Assembly (NCBI GenBank): GCA_027491355.1
Contig: JAIXWI010000009.1
Location: 62,001-126,000, forward strand
Origin: Bacteroidota bacterium
Lineage (GTDB): Bacteria > Bacteroidota > Bacteroidia > UKL13-3
DNA: 64,000 bases
Direction: 5' to 3'
The translations under genes were made by a program, and so were the position numbers. Positions 48,590 to 59,244 of the stretch are shown in pieces. Numbering within the stretch: position 1 is the first letter of the stretch; each line of letters starts with the position of its first letter. A model generated the notes under the pieces. The model had not been told where the DNA came from. It did not search any database and saw only the letters and a program-made list of their open reading frames with translations.

Positions 48590-48639
48590 TAGTCTCGACG
48601 TAAGTCGAAATTGAAACAAGTGTTTAGGGAATAGCTAAT
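48590..48639 (-). other. Diverged tRNA-Arg 3' fragment (old att site)
   Basis: This 50-bp segment aligns without gaps to the last 50 nt of the tRNA-Arg gene at 58704-58753, with 37 of 50 positions identical by my hand alignment. The ten bases at the acceptor end (TAGTCTCGAC) and the TGTTTAGG of the anticodon loop are conserved, while the T-arm differs most. It is followed directly by repeat copy 1, exactly as the second fragment is followed by copy 2. I read it as the scar of an older insertion. Confidence 0.7.
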
Positions 48640-48818
48640 AAAAAAACGGACACCCCTAAAAACACATAAAATATTAGTAATCAGTATTATATGAAAATAT
48701 TACTGATCAATAATTAGTCAATCATTCACTAAAACTTGAACTATTTGCACTGAGCTCTTGCACTCGGTTCTTTTGGGTTCAGTAAAATACTTGTTTAATT
48801 TACTGAAAATCAAGTTTG
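48640..48818. repeat. Island repeat copy 1 (right-end type)
   Basis: 179 bp beginning with an A-run and CGGACACCCC, then a head containing an imperfect inverted repeat (ATTAGTAATCAGT against ACTGATCAATAAT). It ends with a perfect 9-bp inverted repeat TTCAGTAAA/TTTACTGAA (48778-48786 and 48799-48807) just before tRNA-derived sequence. It is nearly identical to copy 4 at 58526-58703. It is bounded by a tRNA fragment on each side, so it looks like a complete minimal element without cargo. Confidence 0.88.
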
Positions 48819-48868
48819 TAGTCTCGACAGGAATCGAACCTGTATCAAATGTTTAGGAAACATCTATT
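48819..48868 (-). other. Exact duplicate of tRNA-Arg 3' 50 nt (attL-like)
   Basis: These 50 bp are identical to 58704-58753 of the tRNA-Arg gene and cover tRNA nucleotides 23-72: the 3' strand of the D stem, the anticodon arm, the T arm and the acceptor 3' strand. The 5' 22 nt are missing, so it is not a functional tRNA. Identity stops exactly where repeat copy 2 begins. It is best read as the far attachment site made when an element integrated into the tRNA gene. Confidence 0.9.
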
Positions 48869-48990
48869 AAAAAACGGACACCCCTAAAAACACATAAAAC
48901 ATTAGTAATCACTATTATATGAAAACATTGATTGTCAATAATTAGTCAATAAACCATAATAATTCAATAAAACTTGAACTAAATTGAACT

Positions 48991-49017
48991 ACTTGCACTC
49001 AATAATGCAAGTTTTTT
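48991..49017 (+). terminator. Terminator hairpin in repeat copy 2
   Basis: ACTTGCA (48991-48997) and TGCAAGT (49006-49012) form a 7-bp stem around an 8-nt loop, followed by a T-run. The stem is short, but the same hairpin is kept in copy 3 and, with one mismatch, at 57489. Confidence 0.6.
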
Positions 49018-49211
49018 GAGCTTCATTTTTATCCTTTAAATTGGTTTGAACTTATACTCTGAAGATACTAAGTGATAGAACCCATTTTTATTTGTTCTGG
49101 TTGATTTTGTTATTTAAAACAGATTCTTGCTCTAAAACTCAAAAAGGTTCAAACTGGTCAAATAAAAAGGAGGTAAAAACCTAATTAAAAAGTATTGACA
49201 ACCAGATACTC

Positions 49212-49241
49212 TTTGTAAAAAGGGACATTGTTTTATATTTG
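49212..49241 (+). promoter_or_regulatory. Promoter in repeat copy 2, without a gene in front
   Basis: TTTG (49212-49215), an 18-bp spacer and TATATTTG (49234-49241) match the Bacteroidota consensus. It points right, towards the 3' end of the minus-strand gene at 49385-50083, so no coding sequence follows in its direction. Transcription from here would be antisense to that gene. Confidence 0.7.
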
Positions 49242-49384
49242 TATTGATTGTTCTATTGTTAGATATTGATTTTCAATTACATATACTTTGAAAAATACTT
49301 TTCAAATTTGAAATTTTGTCTTTGAAACTTATAAAACTAAAAATTAGAAAAAAGTGTATTTTTGAGTATTCCGAGTAAGAAATA

Positions 49385-50083
49385 TTACTCATTTCTTAAA
49401 AAGCTATAGCTGTATCCATCCCATTTGAAAATCACTTTTGATACATAAGCATTAGGCCTACTATACATAGTTCCTGGATCATAGACATCCATCACACATC
49501 GATATTCACAATTACCTAAATATGAAACAGAAATATCATTAACTCTCATTCCCATGCTTTCTGCCTTTCTTAATTGCCCTTTTTCTATTTTAGACTCATT
49601 ACCTTTACAATTATCTGTAAAACTAATATTTGATTTACCTCCTCTGAAAATAAAGAAACATACTATTCCAACAATTCCAATAATCAATAAAATGGTTGTA
49701 TATGAGAAATCGTTATTATTTTTAGTTGTTTTTTGAGATTGAAAATTATCTTCATCTATTCCATTGGCTTGCCCCAAATATGTTCTAACCAAGTTTGTTA
49801 CATTTTCAAATGTTTTTGATTTAATTCTTTGAGGAACTTCTATTATTGGTGTAATTCCAAAGCTTTGTTTTTTCCAATTGAAATTAAAATATACAAATGT
49901 TACATTTTGATTTTCCCGAAAATATATTTGAACATCTAAACCTTTTTGCCAAGAATCAGGTGTTTGAAAATTTAACGTATCTTCATTTGAAAAAATATTT
50001 GAATAATTAAGCTGAAAGCAAGCATTCTTGAACAGAGTCATTATCTCTGTTTTATTTCCTTCATATTTTCCTTCATATTTCAT
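49385..50083 (-). CDS. Hypothetical single-pass membrane protein (island cargo)
   Basis: A 232-residue protein not recognised as any family. Residues 1-105 look like a soluble domain (alternating strands, aromatic-rich). About 106-127 is an Asn/Lys-rich linker, and about 128-147 a single hydrophobic helix (TTILLIIGIVGIVCFFIF). Residues 148-232 form an extracytoplasmic or cytoplasmic tail with two cysteines, NCEYRC and a strand-rich end (VIFKWDGYSYSFLRNE). It is the only gene between repeat copies 2 and 3 and is on the opposite strand to their promoters. Its base composition is strongly AT-rich like the rest of the island. Confidence 0.7.
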   Translation of the reverse strand: MKYEGKYEGNKTEIMTLFKNACFQLNYSNIFSNEDTLNFQTPDSWQKGLDVQIYFRENQNVTFVYFNFNWKKQSFGITPIIEVPQRIKSKTFENVTNLVRTYLGQANGIDEDNFQSQKTTKNNNDFSYTTILLIIGIVGIVCFFIFRGGKSNISFTDNCKGNESKIEKGQLRKAESMGMRVNDISVSYLGNCEYRCVMDVYDPGTMYSRPNAYVSKVIFKWDGYSYSFLRNE

Positions 50084-50357
50084 ACTTAAAATGTTTATGT
50101 TTTTGATATAATAAAAATAATTATTCTACAATATTAGAATATTATATAGACCTACCTATATATTAAGATTGTTTATAGATTTTTTATTTAACCGAAATTC
50201 TACCTGTTTTTAAATCCAAAATATAAATAAGTAATAAAAAACGGACACCCCTAAAAACACATAAAATATTAGTAATCAGTATTATATGAAAATATTGATT
50301 ATCAATAATTAGTCAATAAACAATAATAATTTAATAAAACTTGAACTAATTTGAACT

Positions 50358-50384
50358 ACTTGCACTCAATAATGCAAGTTTTTT
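50358..50384 (+). terminator. Terminator hairpin in repeat copy 3
   Basis: ACTTGCA (50358-50364) pairs with TGCAAGT (50373-50379), followed by a T-run. This would block read-through from the left before the promoter in the same repeat. Confidence 0.6.
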
Positions 50385-50554
50385 GAGCTTCATTTTATCC
50401 TCTGAATTGGTTTGAACTTATACTCTGAAGTTACCAAGTGATAGAACCCATTTTTATTTGTTCTGGTTGATTTTGTTATTCAAAACAGATACTAACTCCA
50501 AAACTCAATGATAATTGTTCTGGTCAAATAAAAAGGACTGACAATCAGTTAATC

Positions 50555-50584
50555 TTTGTAAAAAGGGACATTGTTTTATATTTG
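50555..50584 (+). promoter_or_regulatory. Promoter in repeat copy 3, driving cargo genes
   Basis: TTTG (50555-50558), an 18-bp spacer and TATATTTG (50577-50584) match the Bacteroidota consensus. The expected start of transcription lies near 50592, about 30 bp before the ATG of the lipoprotein gene at 50621. Confidence 0.78.
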
Positions 50585-50620
50585 TATTGATTGTTAAAAA
50601 GACAATTATAAATTAAAACT

Positions 50621-51121
50621 ATGAAAATCAACTACTCGATTTCTCTTTTTATTTTAATGTCCCTCCATACTGCTTGTGGTATTTCTACTGAAGAACAAAA
50701 GAAGAAAGAAGAACAAAGGATTCAAGATTCAATTGAATTATCAATGAGGATTCAAGATTCTATTAACTCATTAGAAAAATCTAATCAACAAGAAGAACTT
50801 AGTCAATCAAGCACTACAATTGAAAATCAAAATGAACCTACAAAACAAGAAGAACAGGTATTGCTAAGTGATGAATCATCTTTGATATCTTACTTATCAG
50901 GAAAGACATTTCACGGAACCAATATTACCATAGAAATCAATCCATCTTCAATAGATATAGACGGTATAAACAGATATTTTAACCTTTCTTTTTCAGTTAT
51001 TAGTCCAACAATGGGACGGATAAGAGGTGAATCATTATCAAATCCAGATGGGATTATTTATATCACAGTCAATACCCAAACTGGATGTATTGAAAATGAT
51101 GGGGGGAGTTTTTGTCAATAA
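50621..51121 (+). CDS. Hypothetical lipoprotein with coiled coil (island cargo)
   Basis: A 166-residue lipoprotein with lipobox HTAC (Cys 19). Residues about 23-75 are a highly charged coiled coil, with the IQDSI unit repeated (RIQDSIELSMRIQDSINSLEK). The C-terminal 75 residues are strand-rich (GTNITIEINPSSIDIDGINRYFNLSFSVISP) and end with two cysteines. No named family recognised. It is the first gene behind the promoter in repeat copy 3 and is followed after 16 bp by the gene at 51138. Confidence 0.78.
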   Translation: MKINYSISLFILMSLHTACGISTEEQKKKEEQRIQDSIELSMRIQDSINSLEKSNQQEELSQSSTTIENQNEPTKQEEQVLLSDESSLISYLSGKTFHGTNITIEINPSSIDIDGINRYFNLSFSVISPTMGRIRGESLSNPDGIIYITVNTQTGCIENDGGSFCQ

Positions 51122-51137
51122 ATAAGCATATCAAAAC

Positions 51138-51500
51138 ATGAACAACAAAGTTATTTATTTCATCATTATTGGGTTTGTTTTATCAATTTTAGCTGTAACA
51201 AATCCAACATTAGAGAAACAGAAAGAGTTATTGGTAAAGAAGATGATCGATGACTCAGAGAAAATCAAGAAAGATAAAGCGGAGAAACAGCCTGAAAACG
51301 CATTCGATAAAATGGCAAATGAATTAGGACAGCAGTTTCTCCAGCCAGAATTCATTACTAATCTGATAGATAATAGCTTGAGTAGAGACAATTATATATT
51401 CTTTTCATTACCAAGAATGACCATAATGAGTAAAACAAAGATTATTGGAATTGGTATTGCTGGAAATGTAATTTGGTTTGAAAAGACAACATTGAAATGA
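51138..51500 (+). CDS. Small membrane-anchored protein, possibly DUF4359
   Basis: A 120-residue protein with an N-terminal hydrophobic helix (residues 5-22) followed by TNPTLEKQKE, a Lys-rich helix, and a strand-rich C-terminus (YIFFSLPRMTIMSKTKIIGIGIAGNVIWFE). The helix-TNP opening and the size recall DUF4359, but the match is from memory and weak. It is probably co-transcribed with the lipoprotein gene 16 bp upstream. Confidence 0.65.
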   Translation: MNNKVIYFIIIGFVLSILAVTNPTLEKQKELLVKKMIDDSEKIKKDKAEKQPENAFDKMANELGQQFLQPEFITNLIDNSLSRDNYIFFSLPRMTIMSKTKIIGIGIAGNVIWFEKTTLK

Positions 51501-51695
51501 TTCTAACCAATCAATGTAACTCGAAAAAGTATATTTGAATCAAGTTTAAAAATTGATTCAGAAATTTCAGGGTAAAACTATAAAGCTATTTATATTGACA
51601 AAAAGTAATCCTAATTTTTTGAAAAATTCATAATAGTCTAAATCAACTCAAAAATTCTTTAAAGCATAAAATTTAAAATTATAATTAATTTAAAA

Positions 51696-53639
51696 ATGTT
51701 AGAAAATAAAAACAGTTTAAGATACTCACAAACCCAACTCCAACTGAAAAAAGTTATACTATCAATTTTAATGTATCTGATATGTTCAAACATTTCGGCA
51801 CAGAAATATAAAAAGTTATACGAAACAAATGATTTACAAAAACTCACTGAAAAAATAGACAAAGCATATAAAAAAGATAGCGCTAACCTTTTACTAATCT
51901 ATTATAAATCAAAAATACTTTCATCAAGTGAGACTAAAAATTTAAATGAATCATATCTCTATATTGATAAAGTATGCAATTTAATAAATGATGTAGAAGA
52001 TGTTAAACTCAAAGAACAATTCTTAGAGGATGATTTATCATACAGCTATGCCAATGAATTTAAACAAAAAGTTTGTTTATTGATTTTAGATTCAATTGAA
52101 AAAAATAGCTCGCAAATTAAAGAAAGCTATAAAAGTTTTATAAGAAATTACAGTTGCGAAGTAAATGAAAAAGTTAAATTTAAAATAGATGAGATTGAAT
52201 TTTTAGAACTCAAATCAGATAGTAACATTCAAAAATGTGATAAATATTTAGCAGAAAATAATAGTTCGTTTCAAAGTGATATACTCAGAATTATTGAATA
52301 TAAAACTTACCAGTCAATCATTAAAAATGAAAAGTCTGATGAATTATGTCTTAAGTTTATTAATAGATTTCCAAATTCTATTTTTTCGCCTGAAATCACT
52401 TATCTTCTATACGAAAGTAAAATAGCCAAAGCATATGTATACAATGATACAAATAGACTTAACATCTTCAAGGTAGAACTCAATAAATATTACCCTAATT
52501 CCTACACAAGAAAAGCAGCTGAGTTAATTGAACAAACAAAAGAGAAAATTTATTATCAACTATGTGAAAATAAAAAAGATAAAGCTACTTTAAATTTATA
52601 CTTAAATACATTTAGATTTTCAGTACATTATGATAGGGTAATTTTTATAAAAGACTCAATTGAAAACGAAAATTCCTTAATATCTTTAATTTTTAATAAC
52701 AACCCCTATAATCCTAAATCTAGATTTAAATTTGATACCCCAAAATTGAATTTAAGTGGCTTTATCAATGATAAAAAGCCTATATTTTTGATTGGTAAAA
52801 TTACACCAAGAAATGAATATGAAAATGAAAATGAAGATGGGGAATATAGTAACGTTAATGGTGATTATTTTGAAAATATATATGTAAAACAATATGATGA
52901 ACTAAAACTTTTTTCACTAAATAAAAGAGTACAACTGTATTTTTCTAGCTTTATAAATGACACTATTATTGAGGCAATTTCAACAAACTCAGAAACGTAT
53001 TATATTTTTAAAAGTGCACTTTATTCAAATCAATTAAGTAGTTTACCTGTTGAATTTAATGATGACAATCTTGAACCAGTTTTAATGTATTTTTCGAAAT
53101 TTAAGACTAATCCTAATTTACAAAATTCCTTAAGATGTTTTGTTGAGTCAAAATTATCAAGATACACCTGGAAAACAGAATTTGATTTTAAAGACAATTC
53201 CGATTTACTTATTAAAAAGATACTTTCAGGTCTAAACCAAAGTGTTGTAAATAACTATGATAAATATTATAGAATTTACAATGGAAAATTTAGAATTTAT
53301 GATTTTGAGAACACATCATTTACTGTCGATTTAGTCAAATTGTTGGGAAATTCAAGGCTTTTTCAAAATGATTTTAGTTATAGAATTATTAACAAGGATT
53401 TATTATCAACTGGCAACGAGGTTAAATTTAAATGTAACCCAAATGTTGCTAGAGAAATTTCTAAGCTTTTTGACTCTGATAGAAATGTCAAGATAAAATT
53501 AATATTAGCCCCTTCAAATTATTTTGACTTGTGTATATGTGAAAATTGTTATGCTATAGATTTTAAAATAAAATCAATTTTAGTAAGTAAAGATGATAGT
53601 TTTAATGATTCAGACACAATTAGAATCAATCTTGAATAG
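51696..53639 (+). CDS. Large exported protein of unknown function (island cargo)
   Basis: A 647-residue protein whose N-terminus has a long polar n-region and then a signal-like helix ending CSNISAQ at about residue 36. Residues about 40-330 are helical and repetitive, TPR-like (IDKAYKKDSANLLLIYYKSKIL...). The C-terminal half is mixed strand, with CICENCYAIDFKIKS near the end. No recognised family. It ends 3 bp before the gene at 53643, so the two very likely form a functional pair. Codon choice is extremely A/T-biased. Confidence 0.72.
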   Translation: MLENKNSLRYSQTQLQLKKVILSILMYLICSNISAQKYKKLYETNDLQKLTEKIDKAYKKDSANLLLIYYKSKILSSSETKNLNESYLYIDKVCNLINDVEDVKLKEQFLEDDLSYSYANEFKQKVCLLILDSIEKNSSQIKESYKSFIRNYSCEVNEKVKFKIDEIEFLELKSDSNIQKCDKYLAENNSSFQSDILRIIEYKTYQSIIKNEKSDELCLKFINRFPNSIFSPEITYLLYESKIAKAYVYNDTNRLNIFKVELNKYYPNSYTRKAAELIEQTKEKIYYQLCENKKDKATLNLYLNTFRFSVHYDRVIFIKDSIENENSLISLIFNNNPYNPKSRFKFDTPKLNLSGFINDKKPIFLIGKITPRNEYENENEDGEYSNVNGDYFENIYVKQYDELKLFSLNKRVQLYFSSFINDTIIEAISTNSETYYIFKSALYSNQLSSLPVEFNDDNLEPVLMYFSKFKTNPNLQNSLRCFVESKLSRYTWKTEFDFKDNSDLLIKKILSGLNQSVVNNYDKYYRIYNGKFRIYDFENTSFTVDLVKLLGNSRLFQNDFSYRIINKDLLSTGNEVKFKCNPNVAREISKLFDSDRNVKIKLILAPSNYFDLCICENCYAIDFKIKSILVSKDDSFNDSDTIRINLE

Positions 53640-53642
53640 AGA

Positions 53643-54254
53643 ATGAGATTTTTTTTCTTGTTGATTTATATTCCTAAATTTTTATTACAACCAGAACCAT
53701 GTGATTATATAAGGGAAAAAACTGAACAATTGTCAAATCAATTTTCAAATTCAAATATAAATTTAAACAAACCATTCTATCTATCAAGAAAAGAATTGTT
53801 TAGTATCGTTTATCCTGAATATGTCACATTTTCTTCCACTACTAATGAGTTGGAGCTGCTTCTTATTAAATCAAATTTATTACTTCATCAAAAAGAATTT
53901 GATTTATCATTTGGACCATTTCAAATGAAATTAAGCTTTATCATTGATATAATTAACAAAGCACCTATCAATAAACTCAATAATCCTATCTTTATAAAAC
54001 TTAGGCTTAATAATAATTCAATTATATCGTCAGATATTGATCATCTGAATAGATTAGAGGTACAGTGGGAAATATTAAGATTATTTGAATTATCTAATTA
54101 TGCAATTTATAAAGAGTACGCTTTGTTGGGTTTATATACAGTTTATAATAGAGGAGACATTAAAAAAGCGAGAACTATATTTCACAAAATAAATTGTAAA
54201 AAAATGTCTTACGAAGATTGGTGCATAGAGTTTTTAAAATATAGACATAACTGA
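53643..54254 (+). CDS. Small exported protein, possibly lysozyme-like
   Basis: A 203-residue protein with a hydrophobic start (residues 1-15) that may be a signal sequence. Two features recall lysozyme or lytic-transglycosylase folds: a glutamate in LFSIVYPEYVTFS (near 59) and, about 40 residues on, FDLSFGPFQMKLSF, similar to the conserved G-x-F/MQ motif. I recall similar arrangements in uncharacterised Bacteroidota proteins but could not verify this. The start follows the upstream stop by 3 bp. Function is a hypothesis only. Confidence 0.6.
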   Translation: MRFFFLLIYIPKFLLQPEPCDYIREKTEQLSNQFSNSNINLNKPFYLSRKELFSIVYPEYVTFSSTTNELELLLIKSNLLLHQKEFDLSFGPFQMKLSFIIDIINKAPINKLNNPIFIKLRLNNNSIISSDIDHLNRLEVQWEILRLFELSNYAIYKEYALLGLYTVYNRGDIKKARTIFHKINCKKMSYEDWCIEFLKYRHN

Positions 54255-54506
54255 AAAATGTAAATACAACCTAAATTAAGCTAATCAAAATATAGTATTT
54301 ATGAGAATGTTTATGTTTTGTAATAATTGCTTAAAAGGCGGTGTTAATATTTAATAAAGAGTAATTTAAAAACAAAAAACTATCCTTGTAATTTCCAAAT
54401 TATATATAGCTATTCTTAATTTAAATATGCATGTTAAAACGGTAGCAAGCAATTATTTTATATAAGTTACTACTATGTTTGTTAACTTGAAAAAAAATTA
54501 GGCTAG

Positions 54507-56369
54507 TTAATTTTTCCATTTTTCCATTTTAACTGCAATTGCCCTTCTGTCCTCAGCGTTAAATTTTTTGACAAAATTTATGTTCAATGACAATCCACCT
54601 TGGTAAAATAGTTGACCCTTCGATTCATAATCTGTGATGTATTTCATCCCAGCATTTAAATCAAAAAATAAAAGTTTTATTCTTACTCCAAAATCATGTG
54701 TATATTTAATATCGTTTCCCAATTTTTCAATTGGAGAATTGACACCATAACTTAAACGAAAAATTCTTAATAAAGTTCCACTCAATTGAGCCTCTCCTAA
54801 CTCAATTTTGCTCCTTACTAACTCATTATTTGTTAAATTAATAACAGAGCCTGTGTTTGTCTGATAACCTAACTTTATTCCTATCAAGTTAGATCTACTT
54901 TTATCTCTTCCTCTGTCTGAAAATTTAGTTTTGGTATTTATTTTTTTATATAGTTCAAAAGAATAGTAAGGTGTTAAGAGTTTAACTTCATCCGGTGAAA
55001 ATCCATTAGGATTATTATAATCTATTAGACTTTGATAGCTATACCCTAATTTAATACAATACAAATGAGGCCTTGTTGCTAACAAATTCTTTTTTTCAAA
55101 TTTAAAAATAGAATTTTCAAGTTTTGAATTTAAACGTTTGATTGTATTAGAAATGTCTTTTTTAAGGCCATAATCTTTAGACATTTGTACTAATACTGAA
55201 GAGGCATTCTCATATTGATTGTTATCTATAAAATGATAAAAACTGTTTGTTAATTTATTTTGGTTTATTTTATTAATTATTTCACCAATATCATTGTATT
55301 TTTCTTTAAATCTATCTGAGCCAAAAAAATTCATTTCTGAATGTATTCTTTTAGCTTCTTCCGAGTTAGTTTGTATTACATTTTTAATTGTTTGAAATTT
55401 GTAATTGAAGTATCCAGAAATTAACTTTTCTTTCCGGGATTTCATCATTTTTTCAAATTCAGGAGATATCCAAATAAGTGAATCTATTGTATACAATGCC
55501 GACTCGTAATCTAACCTGTTTTCATGATAAGATAGTCTATTCATTAAGTTAGATTCAATACATTGTAATGCTTGAGCTCTATCTAATTTTATCCTTTCAT
55601 CTTCAGGATTTGTAGTATACAAATCTTGTAACATGTTATAGGACATTTCACACTTTTTCTCAATGAGTAGTTTGTTAGCTTCCTTGTATTTATCTTCAAA
55701 TTCTTTACCGATAATTCTACTAATAAACTCACTCTTTTGTTGTTTTAGACTCACAAACTCTTCATACAATGTATTGTAATTCTCATTGAGTCCTATGCTT
55801 GTTAGTATATTTAAGTCGTTTTCTAGTTTTGAAATGGTTTCATTTATTTTTACTAACATTTCAGTCAAATTTGATGTTTCAATATTTGTTGTGAGTTCAC
55901 CTAGTAATATTGTTTTATCAAATTGAAATTTTTTAATATAGAGTTGAGCTAAGTTTTCTTTTTCTAATTTAATATAACCATATATTGTTTTAACTTTTTT
56001 GGTATTGTCTGTTGGCCAAGTTTTTATTTCACATTCTGGTAAACTAATATCTGTAGAAATTGTGTTTTTAGAATTATAGTTATTTTGGTAGTGCAAATTA
56101 TCGTTACCTTGAATTTGCCTAGTTTCACTGATATCAGTGCTTTTTACATTTGTGTTTATTTTTTTGGATAATTCTAATTTAAGATTTTGTATTAACTTTT
56201 GGTGTTGTAATCCAAAATTATCTTTATCTACACCTTTAATTTCAGTTTTGTAGTAATAACAACAGTTTGTGTATTTTTGTTCTTCATCTGTATATACCCA
56301 TGAGGGTGAATCTTGAGCAAACAGTACTGAATTAATAATTAATAAAACAGAAAGATAAATGTACTTCAT
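54507..56369 (-). CDS. Exported protein: LPP20-like head, helical middle, barrel-like tail
   Basis: A 620-residue exported protein with signal peptide ending VLFAQ. The mature start SPSWVYTDEEQKYTNCCYYYKTEIKG and the following helix and strand to about residue 150 resemble the LPP20-type domain. About 165-400 is mostly helical and TPR-like (LLIEKKCEMSYNMLQDLYTTNPEDERIKLDRAQALQCIES). The last 200 residues are amphipathic strands (LYCIKLGYSYQSL, LIGIKLGYQTN, FGVRIKLLFFDLNAG), consistent with an outer-membrane barrel. No family name can be given. It is next to the LPP20-like lipoprotein gene on the same strand. Confidence 0.7.
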   Translation of the reverse strand: MKYIYLSVLLIINSVLFAQDSPSWVYTDEEQKYTNCCYYYKTEIKGVDKDNFGLQHQKLIQNLKLELSKKINTNVKSTDISETRQIQGNDNLHYQNNYNSKNTISTDISLPECEIKTWPTDNTKKVKTIYGYIKLEKENLAQLYIKKFQFDKTILLGELTTNIETSNLTEMLVKINETISKLENDLNILTSIGLNENYNTLYEEFVSLKQQKSEFISRIIGKEFEDKYKEANKLLIEKKCEMSYNMLQDLYTTNPEDERIKLDRAQALQCIESNLMNRLSYHENRLDYESALYTIDSLIWISPEFEKMMKSRKEKLISGYFNYKFQTIKNVIQTNSEEAKRIHSEMNFFGSDRFKEKYNDIGEIINKINQNKLTNSFYHFIDNNQYENASSVLVQMSKDYGLKKDISNTIKRLNSKLENSIFKFEKKNLLATRPHLYCIKLGYSYQSLIDYNNPNGFSPDEVKLLTPYYSFELYKKINTKTKFSDRGRDKSRSNLIGIKLGYQTNTGSVINLTNNELVRSKIELGEAQLSGTLLRIFRLSYGVNSPIEKLGNDIKYTHDFGVRIKLLFFDLNAGMKYITDYESKGQLFYQGGLSLNINFVKKFNAEDRRAIAVKMEKWKN

Positions 56370-56585
56370 TTATTAAATAACTTTCAACAATAATTAATTT
56401 TTAGAAAACGTAGATATAAAGATAATCAGCAAAATTTAGAGTTATGTTTTTATAACCCATTTTCACTCAAACCTTTCCTGAAACAGTTATTTATAATTTG
56501 TTTTTGCATACTATCTTATGAAGTATATTCAGCTATAAAACTATTTTAAACTTAGATTAAGTCTAATAAAATCTTTAAAAATGAA

Positions 56586-57155
56586 TCATTGTTCATTTAA
56601 TAACTTCTCCATTTCTCTTTCATAGATTTCCTCAAATTTCTTTTTGTCATACTCTAGTTTTAACCTTTCATTTTTAGATATTTTATTGTTAACGCCCTCT
56701 AATAAAGATTGTTTTGTAACTTCTATTACCACCCAATAGGTGTAAGCACCATCCCTTTCCCTAAAAATTTTTTCTTCTAATAGTTTTACGCCAGCCAAAC
56801 TTTGACTCACAACTTCTCTTGTTGATTCCTCAAATTTATTTTCAAATTCTTGTTTATTGTCTATAGTTATTTGATTTGTGTATTGATCATTTACTCTTTT
56901 AATGAGAGTTTTGATATTACTGGCCAACTCTGCTTTTGCATTTTGTAAGGCTATTTTTTTAGCAGTAGCTAAATCCGGACTTTTCCCAGAATTTTTTGCC
57001 CTGAAATTATCCTTATCAGATTTATATTTACTTTCGGAAAATGGAACTATTATTTCTTGAGACTTTGAGGATTGTTCAATCTTTTTAGCACTATTGCAGC
57101 TTGCCAAACCTATTGCAGCTGCCAAGCAAATTAGTATTGTTTTTTTTGATTGCAT
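56586..57155 (-). CDS. LPP20-like lipoprotein (island cargo)
   Basis: A 189-residue lipoprotein with lipobox LASC (Cys 20). The body shows an LPP20-type pattern: ATAKKIALQNAKAELASNIKTLIKRV, a long middle helix, VVSQSLAGVKLLEEKIF, then AYTYWVVIEVTKQSL and a charged C-terminal coiled coil. Such domains occur in envelope lipoproteins and near CsgG-like secretion systems. The gene at 54507 lies downstream on the same strand after a 216-bp gap and shares the domain type, so the two may act together. Confidence 0.75.
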   Translation of the reverse strand: MQSKKTILICLAAAIGLASCNSAKKIEQSSKSQEIIVPFSESKYKSDKDNFRAKNSGKSPDLATAKKIALQNAKAELASNIKTLIKRVNDQYTNQITIDNKQEFENKFEESTREVVSQSLAGVKLLEEKIFRERDGAYTYWVVIEVTKQSLLEGVNNKISKNERLKLEYDKKKFEEIYEREMEKLLNEQ

Positions 57156-57660
57156 TTTGATATTTAAAAATAACTTGTTGAAAATTTTAATTTCTCAATT
57201 TTACAAAAAACACTTGAATTATCATACTACTAAAATAAATGACGTTTGAGTGCTATTTTTTTATATTCAACGCATTATTTAAAATAGGTCAAAAATATTC
57301 ATTAAAAACAACACAAAGCACTATTTTCAGGAGCGCCGATGAAAGTCATTTTAAACCAAAATATTATTTAGTAAAAACCTTTAAAACATGTCGGTAACCT
57401 AGAAACAAGAAGTTTCATAATTGTATTTTTTAAATTCTGTAATAAAGTAAATACATCCAGAAGTTTATTATTCAATATGTTTGATGCCACTTACACTCAA
57501 TAATGCAAGTTTTTGAGCTTCAATTTTATCTTTAAAAGGCTTGAAAAATCCTACGAACAAAATTTATACCACTGTTTTATTTTTGAATAAAATAATTTTT
57601 AATGGTTAATTTTTACAATTTGTTAGTTATTATTGTTAAAAGTATTAAAATTAGCAAAAT
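57156..57660. other. AT-rich spacer with a partial repeat copy
   Basis: About 500 bp without a credible gene. The right-hand part contains a 42-bp piece of the repeat tail at 57489-57530 (listed separately). The rest is AT-rich sequence in which I see no consensus promoter, although both flanking genes read away from here and must start within it. Confidence 0.6.
57489..57530 (+). repeat. Partial copy of the repeat tail (terminator part)
   Basis: This segment reads ACTTACACTCAATAATGCAAG and continues through TTTTTGAGCTTCA, with only a few differences from the terminator part of copies 2 and 3. The hairpin keeps six of seven pairs. The head and the promoter are absent. It suggests that a further repeat copy was once present upstream of the gene pair at 57661. 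Confidence 0.7.
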
Positions 57661-58017
57661 ATGACACAGTCAATTCCAAAGTTTAAAAACGAACCAATTT
57701 TAGTTTTACTGCTCGGTTTTTTAACCTGTGGCCTATATCTAATCTATTGGAATATGAAAGCAGCTGAAGTTATAAATGCTGCTGCGGAAAAGGAAGTTAT
57801 TTCACAACCTATTGCAATTTTTGCTGGTTGTTGCTTCCCAGTTAACTTGTATTTTTATTATTTGGCGGGAAAAGAAGGCTTACCAAAAGTTTATGAAAAA
57901 AGTGGGCAAAGCTCTAAAGATGATTCTATACTATTACTTGTGCTTGGATTTATTTTCCCAATGGTAGCAGCCATGATTGTGCAAGGTGATATTAACAAAC
58001 TTTATGACCAAAATTAA
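57661..58017 (+). CDS. DUF4234-like small membrane protein
   Basis: A 118-residue membrane protein with three hydrophobic segments. The opening KNEPILVLLLGFLTCGLYLIYWNMKAAEVIN fits DUF4234, whose signature is a G-x-Y-x-x-YW turn after the first helix. The end shows AAMIVQGDINKLYD. Function unknown. Its last 14 bp overlap the start of the DUF2752 gene, so the two are translationally linked. Confidence 0.8.
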   Translation: MTQSIPKFKNEPILVLLLGFLTCGLYLIYWNMKAAEVINAAAEKEVISQPIAIFAGCCFPVNLYFYYLAGKEGLPKVYEKSGQSSKDDSILLLVLGFIFPMVAAMIVQGDINKLYDQN

Positions 58018-58450
58018 TATAACTCGAAAGTTATTTGCATCAACGAGTGTTTTAATTATTCTAATATTTCCACTTTTTATAAAGTTAACCTCTGGTACTA
58101 ACAATATAGAAACCTCTCAATCATTTTGTCCATTTAAAATGATAACAGGCATGCCTTGTCCAGGGTGTGGAATAACAAAATCTTTGATCTTTCTTTATGA
58201 GGGGGATTTGTTAAAAAGCATCTCTTACCACCTTTTTGGACCATTGGTATTTTTATTTGGAATCATCATTGTTATTGTTTCATTCATAGAGCTGCTTGCA
58301 AACAAGGAGGTTCTAAATAAGATATATCAAAACAAAAAACTTGGTTATGCAATAGGGACTACCTTATTTGTTTATCACTTTATACGGGTTATTGTTTTTA
58401 TTTCAATAAATAATATTGATTATATTTTACAGGAATCAATTTGGAAGTAA
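58004..58450 (+). CDS. DUF2752 family membrane protein
   Basis: A 148-residue protein using the ATG at 58004, inside the end of the preceding gene. The family motif CPFKMITGMPCPGCGITKSL, with three cysteines, lies near residues 37-56, following a first hydrophobic helix. Two further helices follow (about 75-98 and 115-137). DUF2752 proteins are small membrane proteins without established function, often next to small multi-pass proteins such as this DUF4234 partner. It is the last gene before repeat copy 4 and the tRNA. Confidence 0.82.
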   Translation: MTKINITRKLFASTSVLIILIFPLFIKLTSGTNNIETSQSFCPFKMITGMPCPGCGITKSLIFLYEGDLLKSISYHLFGPLVFLFGIIIVIVSFIELLANKEVLNKIYQNKKLGYAIGTTLFVYHFIRVIVFISINNIDYILQESIWK

Positions 58451-58525
58451 GCTTAGAAATTCTCACTATGCATAAAAAATTTACAATAGTTAGAAAGCTT
58501 TTGTTTTTTTTATTAAAGTACTAAT

Positions 58526-58703
58526 AAAAAACGGACACCCCTAAAAACACATAAAATATTAGTAATCAGTATTATATGAAAATATTACTGATCAATAATT
58601 AGTCAATCATTCACTAAAACTTGAACTATTTGCACTGAGCACTTGCACTCAGTTCTTTTAGGTTCAGTAAAATACTTTTTTAATTTACTGAAAATCAAGT
58701 TTG
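58526..58703. repeat. Island repeat copy 4 (right-end type)
   Basis: 178 bp, nearly identical to copy 1 at 48640-48818 (four substitutions and one A in the leading A-run by hand count). The same 9-bp inverted repeat TTCAGTAAA/TTTACTGAA lies at 58663-58671 and 58684-58692, just outside the tRNA 3' end. It forms the tRNA-proximal end of the island. Confidence 0.9.
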
Positions 58704-58775
58704 TAGTCTCGACAGGAATCGAACCTGTATCAAATGTTTAGGAAACATCTATTCTATCCATTGAACTACGAGACC
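58704..58775 (-). tRNA. tRNA-Arg (anticodon CCT)
   Basis: 72 nt on the minus strand fold into a complete cloverleaf. The acceptor stem is GGTCTCG/CGAGACT, the D stem GTTC/GAAT and the anticodon stem GATGT/ACATT. The loop TTCCTAA has anticodon CCT at the usual place. The T stem is ACAGG/CCTGT with loop TTCGATT, and the discriminator base is A. It reads AGG codons. CCA is not encoded. The last 50 nt are the target duplicated in the island. Confidence 0.95.
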
Positions 58776-58908: not shown

Positions 58909-59244
58909 ATGAGATTATTGATAGTAACCCTATTTGGATTGTTATTGATCCAAAATGTAAAGGCTCAGAAGGTATTCGCCGTTGATTATGCCAACCAAGC
59001 CGACTTAAAAGTATTTGTTGTAAAATATGCCAATCAGGCCGACTTAAAGGTTTACAAAGTCAGGTATGAGAACCAAGCTGGTGAAAACAATGGCGAATGG
59101 TATTTTACTAAATACGCCAATCAAGCACACAAGAAAATTTATTTTGTAGACTATGAAAATCAAGCTGATTTAAAAATCTACTTCGTGCAATACGAAAATC
59201 AAGCAGGTTGGAACCGTGCCAGTAAGAAGGCATTGCTGTATTAG
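58909..59244 (+). CDS. DUF6150-like exported repeat protein
   Basis: A 111-residue protein with signal peptide ending VKAQ, then about seven short repeats of roughly 13 residues built on Y-A/E-N-Q-A, for example VDYANQADLKVF, VKYANQADLKVY and VRYENQAGE. The pattern fits DUF6150, a Bacteroidota family with no known function. It lies just beyond the tRNA on the core side. Its stop abuts the convergent tail-collar gene stop with no gap. Confidence 0.8.
   Translation: MRLLIVTLFGLLLIQNVKAQKVFAVDYANQADLKVFVVKYANQADLKVYKVRYENQAGENNGEWYFTKYANQAHKKIYFVDYENQADLKIYFVQYENQAGWNRASKKALLY

What the first reader, a model, noticed from the sequence alone, without database searches (positions are those of the whole stretch)
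48590..58775. Recombinase-less genomic island built on tRNA-Arg(CCT)
The sequence shows about 10 kb of AT-rich unknown genes ending against the 3' end of a tRNA gene. A direct repeat of about 228 bp, which includes the last 50 nt of that tRNA, lies at both sides. Duplication of a tRNA 3' segment is the known outcome of tyrosine-recombinase integration. No integrase is visible, so the element is probably mobilised in trans, comparable in principle to satellites or cargo-only tRNA-linked elements described in other phyla. I know of no described Bacteroidota family with this exact organisation, but could not search.
Basis: partly seen in the sequence, partly recalled or inferred. Interest (0 to 1): 0.8.

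Follow-up and report, generated by a model that had tools for sequence, protein, structure and literature searches.

The report
Integrase-less tRNA-Arg genomic island, stacked units
A small Bacteroidota genome carries a 10-kb block of foreign, AT-rich genes stacked in several units against one transfer-RNA gene, bounded by copies of the tRNA's end but with no recombinase gene of its own; this is most likely a composite, integrase-free remnant of known tRNA-targeting mobile islands rather than a new kind of element.

Summary
tRNA-Arg(CCT) is at 58703-58775(-). A 228-bp repeat (48641-48868 and 58526-58753, 224/228 identical) contains the last 50 nt of the tRNA and brackets 9.9 kb of 24-29% GC DNA (flanks 33-43%). 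No recombinase is encoded inside. There is a third, decayed tRNA copy (48590-48639, 37/50 matches). There are also four copies of one element end (AAAAAACGGACACCCC...), two of them longer, with a terminator hairpin and a Bacteroidota-type promoter. A further copy, still attached to 24 nt of the tRNA anticodon stem-loop, lies between priA and rsmB, a site empty in two congeners. So this is not one simple island but at least two, probably three or four, stacked units. The tRNA is a family-wide hot spot: a congener has different integrase-less cargo there; another genus has a 14-kb island with its own integrase on the same side; a third has a 25-kb integrase element plus a 2.4-kb integrase-less insert sharing both its ends. 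Best reading: a CIME-like composite island made by tyrosine-recombinase integration at the anticodon loop, integrase lost or supplied from outside. Present trans-mobilisation is possible but unproven.

The parts
58703..58775 (-). tRNA-Arg(CCT), intact; attachment target
   Evidence: ARAGORN; Rfam tRNA 66.9 bits
58704..58753 (-). 3' 50 nt of the tRNA (from the anticodon stem on) = attR core
   Evidence: identical to 48819-48868
58526..58703 (+). element end R, copy B, starting AAAAAACGGACACCCC and abutting the tRNA 3' end; contains the inverted repeat TTCAGTAAA..TTTACTGAA at 58663-58692
48819..48868 (-). tRNA-Arg 3' duplicate (attL core), 50/50 identical
   Evidence: weak Rfam tRNA match 48819-48876, 26.9 bits
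48641..48818 (+). element end R, copy A; with the tRNA duplicate it forms a 228-bp gene-less unit
48590..48639 (-). decayed third copy of the tRNA 3' end (37/50), oldest boundary
48869..49252 (+). long element end R': core AAAAAACGGACACCCC, terminator hairpin 48991-49013, promoter TTTG-N18-TATATTTG at 49212-49241
50237..50595 (+). second long element end R'', with terminator hairpin about 50358 and promoter at 50555-50584, upstream of gene 50621
57489..57530 (+). remnant of the hairpin part of R'
49385..50083 (-). cargo, 232 aa, unknown
50621..51121 (+). cargo, 166-aa probable lipoprotein; 72-73% relatives in G012 (2 kb from tRNA-Arg CCT) and G086
51138..51500 (+). cargo, DUF4359
51696..53639 (+). 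cargo, 647-aa probably secreted orphan; no relative in 395 genomes of the class
53643..54254 (+). cargo, 203 aa, unknown
54507..56369 (-). cargo, 620-aa probably secreted orphan; no relative in 64 family genomes
56586..57155 (-). cargo, probable lipoprotein, weak LPP20 match below cut-off
57661..58017 (+). cargo, DUF4234
58007..58450 (+). cargo, DUF2752

Best explanation
It is a composite genomic island made of at least two (probably three or four) related units that entered the 3' side of tRNA-Arg(CCT) one after another by site-specific recombination, of the tyrosine-recombinase kind, with the anticodon stem-loop (ATGTTT-AGG-AAACAT) as the core. Each entry restored the tRNA with an element-borne 3' half and left the older 3' half behind, which gives the tRNA copies at 48819 and (decayed) 48590. 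Every unit begins with the same end (AAAAAACGGACACCCC...); the long form of that end carries a terminator and a promoter that feed the cargo. The island encodes no recombinase today. It keeps matched attL/attR copies, so a visiting or resident integrase of the right specificity could still excise a 9,885-bp circle: a CIME-like (cis-mobilizable) state. Shown: repeats, sharp ends, absence of an integrase, hot-spot behaviour in relatives, and a copy of core plus end at a second locus. Inferred: the recombinase class, the order of events, loss of the integrase rather than never having had one, and any present mobility.
For: 228-bp repeat with the 50-nt tRNA end, 98% and 50/50 identical, plus a third decayed copy 37/50. 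Alignment of five ends shows near-identity to the right of (C/G)TAAT|AAAAAACGG and unrelated sequence to the left, except where the tRNA core is present. The composite core + end also lies between priA and rsmB in this genome (contigs C10/C12, 119-nt overlap), where G003 and G001 have the two genes 4 bp apart; the identity with the tRNA there is exactly tRNA positions 26-49. Hot spot: G003 (same genus) is syntenic on the tRNA 5' side at 78-100% aa but has different cargo on the 3' side, again with a partial tRNA copy. G066: 14-kb island on the same side, bounded by a tRNA 3' copy, with a Phage_integrase protein next to it. G026 and G004: 25-kb integrase element and 2.4-kb integrase-less insert sharing both ends; the same site is empty in G033. 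Extra tRNA-Arg(CCT) fragments near the gene in at least eight other family genomes. The anticodon stem-loop as a tyrosine-recombinase core is established (review PMC8371274). GC contrast.
Against: No integrase with this specificity was identified anywhere, so the recombinase class is inferred. No empty site of the same species, no reads and no circle junction could be examined. The junctions at 50225 and 58515 lack a recognisable tRNA core, so the internal unit boundaries are less certain. The priA-rsmB copy has a core at one side only. The element ends were found in no other held genome, so mobility between species is not shown.
Confidence: 0.68

Rival explanations
1. An actively mobile, integrase-free satellite (tycheposon- or CALIN-like): cassettes with a shared att end, terminator and promoter are moved in trans by a recombinase encoded elsewhere, such as the orphan 355-aa XerA/IntI-like recombinase on contig C21 or a visiting integrative element.
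For: Very similar attL/attR copies; repeated gene-less 228-bp unit; insulated promoter-bearing ends; the same composite inserted at priA-rsmB; a family precedent of an integrase-less insert sharing both ends with an integrase element; a 530-bp, 98.5% identical single-gene block with different neighbours in two genera; an orphan recombinase is present.
Against: No helper with the same ends was found in 64 family genomes or the collections scanned; the C21 recombinase sits beside restriction-modification-like genes with no att-like repeats nearby and has no match at E <= 1e-30 in G003; a decayed, stuck island gives the same anatomy.
Confidence: 0.15
2. A plain dead relic: one integrase-bearing island entered long ago, lost its integrase and was then reshaped by homologous recombination and small duplications; the extra R copies are secondary duplications.
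For: No integrase, orphan cargo, decayed tRNA copy at 48590, truncated remnants at 57489 and C20:1319-1436.
Against: The 50/50 identity of the tRNA copies and 98% identity of R argue for a recent event or continuing exchange; the copy at priA-rsmB, carrying exactly the anticodon core, is not explained by local duplication.
Confidence: 0.12
3. R/R' is a dispersed promoter-terminator repeat of a surface-protein gene family (paralogous upstream regions), and its link to the tRNA is incidental.
For: The promoter half of R' is shared with the upstream region of LamG/FISUMP-type genes in this genome and in G001, with the same MKHKLQ-like start.
Against: R copies A and B have no gene downstream but abut tRNA 3' ends; the conserved block starts abruptly at the tRNA core.
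Confidence: 0.05

Closest known systems
CIMEs (cis-mobilizable elements) and ICE/IME accretion, as in the Streptococcus thermophilus ICESt1 family
   Same: No integration or transfer genes, att copies retained, tandem structures built by later integrations at the same att site (PMC5704250).
   Different: No parent ICE or IME with matching ends is known; the internal ends carry terminator and promoter; the target is an anticodon stem-loop.
Additive flexible genomic islands with repeated tRNA ends, e.g. fGI-2 of 'Ca. Methylopumilus' (repeats of the last 20 nt of tRNA-Lys)
   Same: Variable, mostly unknown cargo behind repeated tRNA 3' fragments; size 330 bp-42 kb (PMC10872708).
   Different: Here the repeat is 50 nt plus a 178-bp element end, and a copy of end + core exists away from the tRNA.
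Riemerella anatipestifer 10K genomic island at tRNA-Arg (Bacteroidota)
   Same: 10-kb island next to tRNA-Arg with 53-bp direct repeats, integration and excision shown (PMC6764341).
   Different: It encodes its own tyrosine integrase; this island does not.
Tycheposons (Prochlorococcus and others)
   Same: Cargo-rich, tRNA-linked islands; described as satellites (PMC11389934) and as large cargo-carrying transposons with tRNA borders and xerD (PMC10872708).
   Different: Those in Methylophilaceae carry a tyrosine recombinase; no recombinase is present here. The original description was not held in the library.
Integrase-bearing islands at the same tRNA in the same family (G066, G026)
   Same: Same tRNA-Arg(CCT) target and anticodon-region cores; G066 on the same side.
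   Different: No shared end sequence; they carry their own integrase; G026 inserts on the 5' side.

Membership tests
tRNA-linked genomic island | tRNA 3' segment duplicated at the far end of the island | tested here: met
   50/50 identical copy at 48819-48868
tRNA-linked genomic island | Composition differs from the flanks and content is variable between relatives | tested here: met
   24-29% vs 33-43% GC; different cargo in G003
tRNA-linked genomic island | Own integrase next to one end (usual, not universal) | tested here: not met
   No recombinase in island ORFs; PF00589 only on other contigs
CIME (cis-mobilizable element) | Lacks integration and transfer genes | tested here: met
CIME (cis-mobilizable element) | Retains attL and attR | tested here: met
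CIME (cis-mobilizable element) | Derived from an identifiable ICE or IME with related ends | tested here: not met
   No element with these ends in 64 family genomes, IMG/VR or GTDB contigs by exact core; hence 'CIME-like', not filed as a CIME
CIME (cis-mobilizable element) | Mobilised when an integrative element integrates beside it | not testable with these tools
   needs an experiment or strain reads
Tycheposon | tRNA border with cargo and a tyrosine recombinase (as described in PMC10872708) | tested here: not met
   no recombinase in the island
Phage satellite (PICI-like) | Phage-related genes (capsid, terminase, replication, regulators) | tested here: not met
   no relevant PHROGs hit; one weak galactosyl transferase match, E=0.0017
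Integron / CALIN | attC sites between cassettes | not tested
   no attC model was run; the repeated unit holds a tRNA core rather than an obvious attC

The most novel reading that the evidence does not exclude
A family of integrase-free gene cassettes, each with one shared att end that carries a terminator and a promoter, is moved in trans by a tyrosine recombinase into tRNA-Arg anticodon stem-loops and secondary sites, building integron-like arrays in a Bacteroidota lineage.
Probability: 0.1. Interest if true: 0.75.

Novelty: new member of a known kind. Interest (0 to 1): 0.36.

Why it matters
It shows a tRNA hot spot in a Bacteroidota family where islands with and without integrases occupy the same site, including in one genus an integrase element and an integrase-less insert sharing both ends. 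That gives a testable natural series for how tRNA islands lose, or do without, their integrase. The promoter-bearing ends would matter if they prove to be moved as expression-ready cassettes.

Tried and rejected
Exact-core scans of GTDB contigs and IMG/VR and BLAST or profile searches of 58-64 relatives: no other genome with these ends; a marginal G001:C28 profile hit lies beside tRNA-Leu and looks like chance. Cargo searches in phages, plasmids, IMG/VR, GTDB and 395 class genomes: nothing beyond the 166-aa protein's two close relatives. Phage-satellite, defence and Rfam readings: no support. The C21 orphan recombinase as the cognate enzyme: possible, but no att-like repeats lie beside it and its family is scattered with up to 9 matches per genome. 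The C41 integrase belongs to its own element at tRNA-Lys. An assembly artefact was considered: the repeat has 4 mismatches and the congener shows a hot spot at the same place, so it is unlikely. My first idea that R is a fusion of two element arms was dropped once R aligned with R' along most of its length.
Full report
CHECK OF THE OBSERVATION. The window is contig C38:62001-126000 of a 2.44-Mb, 44-contig genome. tRNA-Arg(CCT) lies at 58703-58775 on the minus strand. The 228-bp direct repeat is real: 48641-48868 and 58526-58753, 98% identical, 9,885 bp apart, with four mismatches and none in the 50 tRNA nucleotides. A third, decayed copy of the tRNA end sits at 48590-48639 with 37 of 50 matches; the best of 40 Markov shuffles of the window was 32. 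The bracketed DNA is 24-29% GC against 33-43% outside. No ORF in it matches a recombinase or transposase family, and the only PF00589 proteins of the genome are on other contigs: XerD- and XerC-like proteins, an XerA/IntI-like orphan on C21, and an integrase beside tRNA-Lys on C41.

ANATOMY. The block that begins AAAAAACGGACACCCC occurs four times in the window, all in the same orientation: 48641, 48869, 50237 and 58526. Two are short (R, 178 bp) and abut a tRNA 3' end. Two are long (R', 360-385 bp) and contain an intrinsic-terminator-like hairpin and a perfect TTTG-N18-TATATTTG promoter of the Bacteroidota type (promoter consensus from general knowledge); at 50595 the promoter leads into the gene at 50621. 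The alignment shows near-identity to the right of (C/G)TAAT|AAAAAACGG and unrelated sequence to the left, except where the tRNA core is present. That is how an element end next to an attachment core looks. The promoter half of R' is older than the rest, since a similar promoter precedes a LamG gene in congener G001, without the AAAAAACGG part.

A COPY AWAY FROM THE tRNA. Contigs C12 and C10 of the same genome overlap by 119 nt exactly at another R' preceded by tRNA positions 26-49, the anticodon stem-loop. This composite lies in a roughly 7.9-kb insert between priA and rsmB, with a DUF4143 ATPase and two large proteins with LamG/Kelch or Fib_succ_major domains. In congeners G003 and G001 priA and rsmB are 4 bp apart, so the insert is absent there. 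Only one core was found at this locus, so how the composite got there is open.

RELATIVES. On the tRNA 5' side the congener G003 is syntenic (DUF6150 protein, a tail-fibre-like protein, a dehydrogenase, IscA-like, S20, RadC, GlyA; 78-100% identical proteins). On the 3' side it has other AT-rich genes and a partial tRNA copy. A module of that G003 island matches G000 contig C20 at 68% DNA identity, so cargo of this sort occurs at more than one locus. The efflux operon to the left of the island in the window is not found in G003, so the variable region may extend further left than 48590. In genus g2, G033 has an empty 5' side, G026 a 25-kb element with a tyrosine-recombinase-like protein, and G004 a 2.4-kb insert with one surface-protein-like gene and no integrase; both ends of the G004 insert match both ends of the G026 element at 83-88%. 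In g3, G066 has a 14-kb island on the 3' side of the same tRNA, closed by a tRNA 3' copy with a Phage_integrase protein beside it. At least eight other family genomes carry extra fragments of this tRNA near it. The locus is a family-wide hot spot, and several occupants carry integrases.

CARGO. The nine genes are mostly short or secreted-looking proteins of unknown function. The 647-aa protein has no relative in 395 genomes of the class, the 620-aa protein none in 64 family genomes. The 166-aa protein has 72-73% relatives in G012, where it lies 2 kb from tRNA-Arg(CCT), and in G086; those two share a 530-bp block at 98.5% identity with different neighbours.

MECHANISM. The simplest account is serial site-specific integration at the anticodon stem-loop, a palindromic core known for tyrosine recombinases (PMC8371274). 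Each integration supplied a new 3' half to the tRNA and left the old one at the far junction. Recombination between the two intact cores would release a 9,885-bp circle. The island encodes no enzyme for this. Loss of the integrase after accretion (the CIME state, PMC5704250) needs no extra assumption and is preferred; trans-mobilisation remains possible, and the G026/G004 pair shows that integrase-less versions of integrase elements exist in this family. Mobility, the recombinase class and the order of events are inferred, not shown.

MEMBERSHIP AND NOVELTY. It works like a CIME or an additive tRNA-linked island (PMC10872708). It fails the own-integrase feature of ordinary islands such as the R. 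anatipestifer 10K island (PMC6764341) and the recombinase feature of tycheposons as described in PMC10872708, and no parent element with the same ends is known. I therefore call it a new, sequence-private member of a known kind (integrase-less, tRNA-linked, accreted genomic islands). The unusual points are the promoter-bearing ends and the copy of core plus end at priA-rsmB.

Noticed in passing
G000 contigs C12 (L050/L040) and C10 (L049): Insert of about 7.9 kb between priA and rsmB carrying a DUF4143 ATPase and two large surface-type proteins; the contigs end in R' with an exact 119-nt overlap, which suggests a branch in the assembly graph at this junction, possibly population variation.
   Followed up: partly
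L083 1670-1801 (G014), L084 200-265 (G015), L075 4937-5030 (G003), L079 (G012): Partial copies of tRNA-Arg(CCT) beside the real gene in which the anticodon stem-loop is replaced or followed by GC-rich palindromes (e.g. CCCGCACGTGCGGG, CCCCGAGGTCTCGGGG, CTGACTGGC..GCCACGTCAG).
   Followed up: no
L076 3839-6200 (G004) versus L080/L092 (G026) and L082 (G033): Same tRNA: empty site, 25-kb integrase element, and 2.4-kb integrase-less insert with one surface-protein-like gene that shares both ends with the 25-kb element.
   Followed up: partly
L052 (G000 contig C41, 46-3627): Separate integrated element at tRNA-Lys(TTT): 415-aa integrase, a probable small DNA-binding protein, VapE-like protein; satellite-like.
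   Followed up: partly
L149 2986-9655 (G000 contig C21): Orphan XerA/integron-integrase-like recombinase (355 aa) beside restriction-modification-like genes; relatives of 44-60% identity in many family genomes, often near contig ends.
   Followed up: partly
L051 2628-4276 (G000 contig C20) versus L075 364-2024 (G003): A two-gene module of unknown function found at the tRNA-Arg island in G003 and, beside an R' remnant, at a different locus in G000.
   Followed up: partly
L139 11266-11795 (G086) versus L079 (G012): 530-bp single-gene block 98.5% identical between two genera but with different neighbours: probable recent transfer of one gene.
   Followed up: partly
window 58909-59244: DUF6150 protein made of similar 13-residue repeats (YANQADLKVFVVK).
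   Followed up: no
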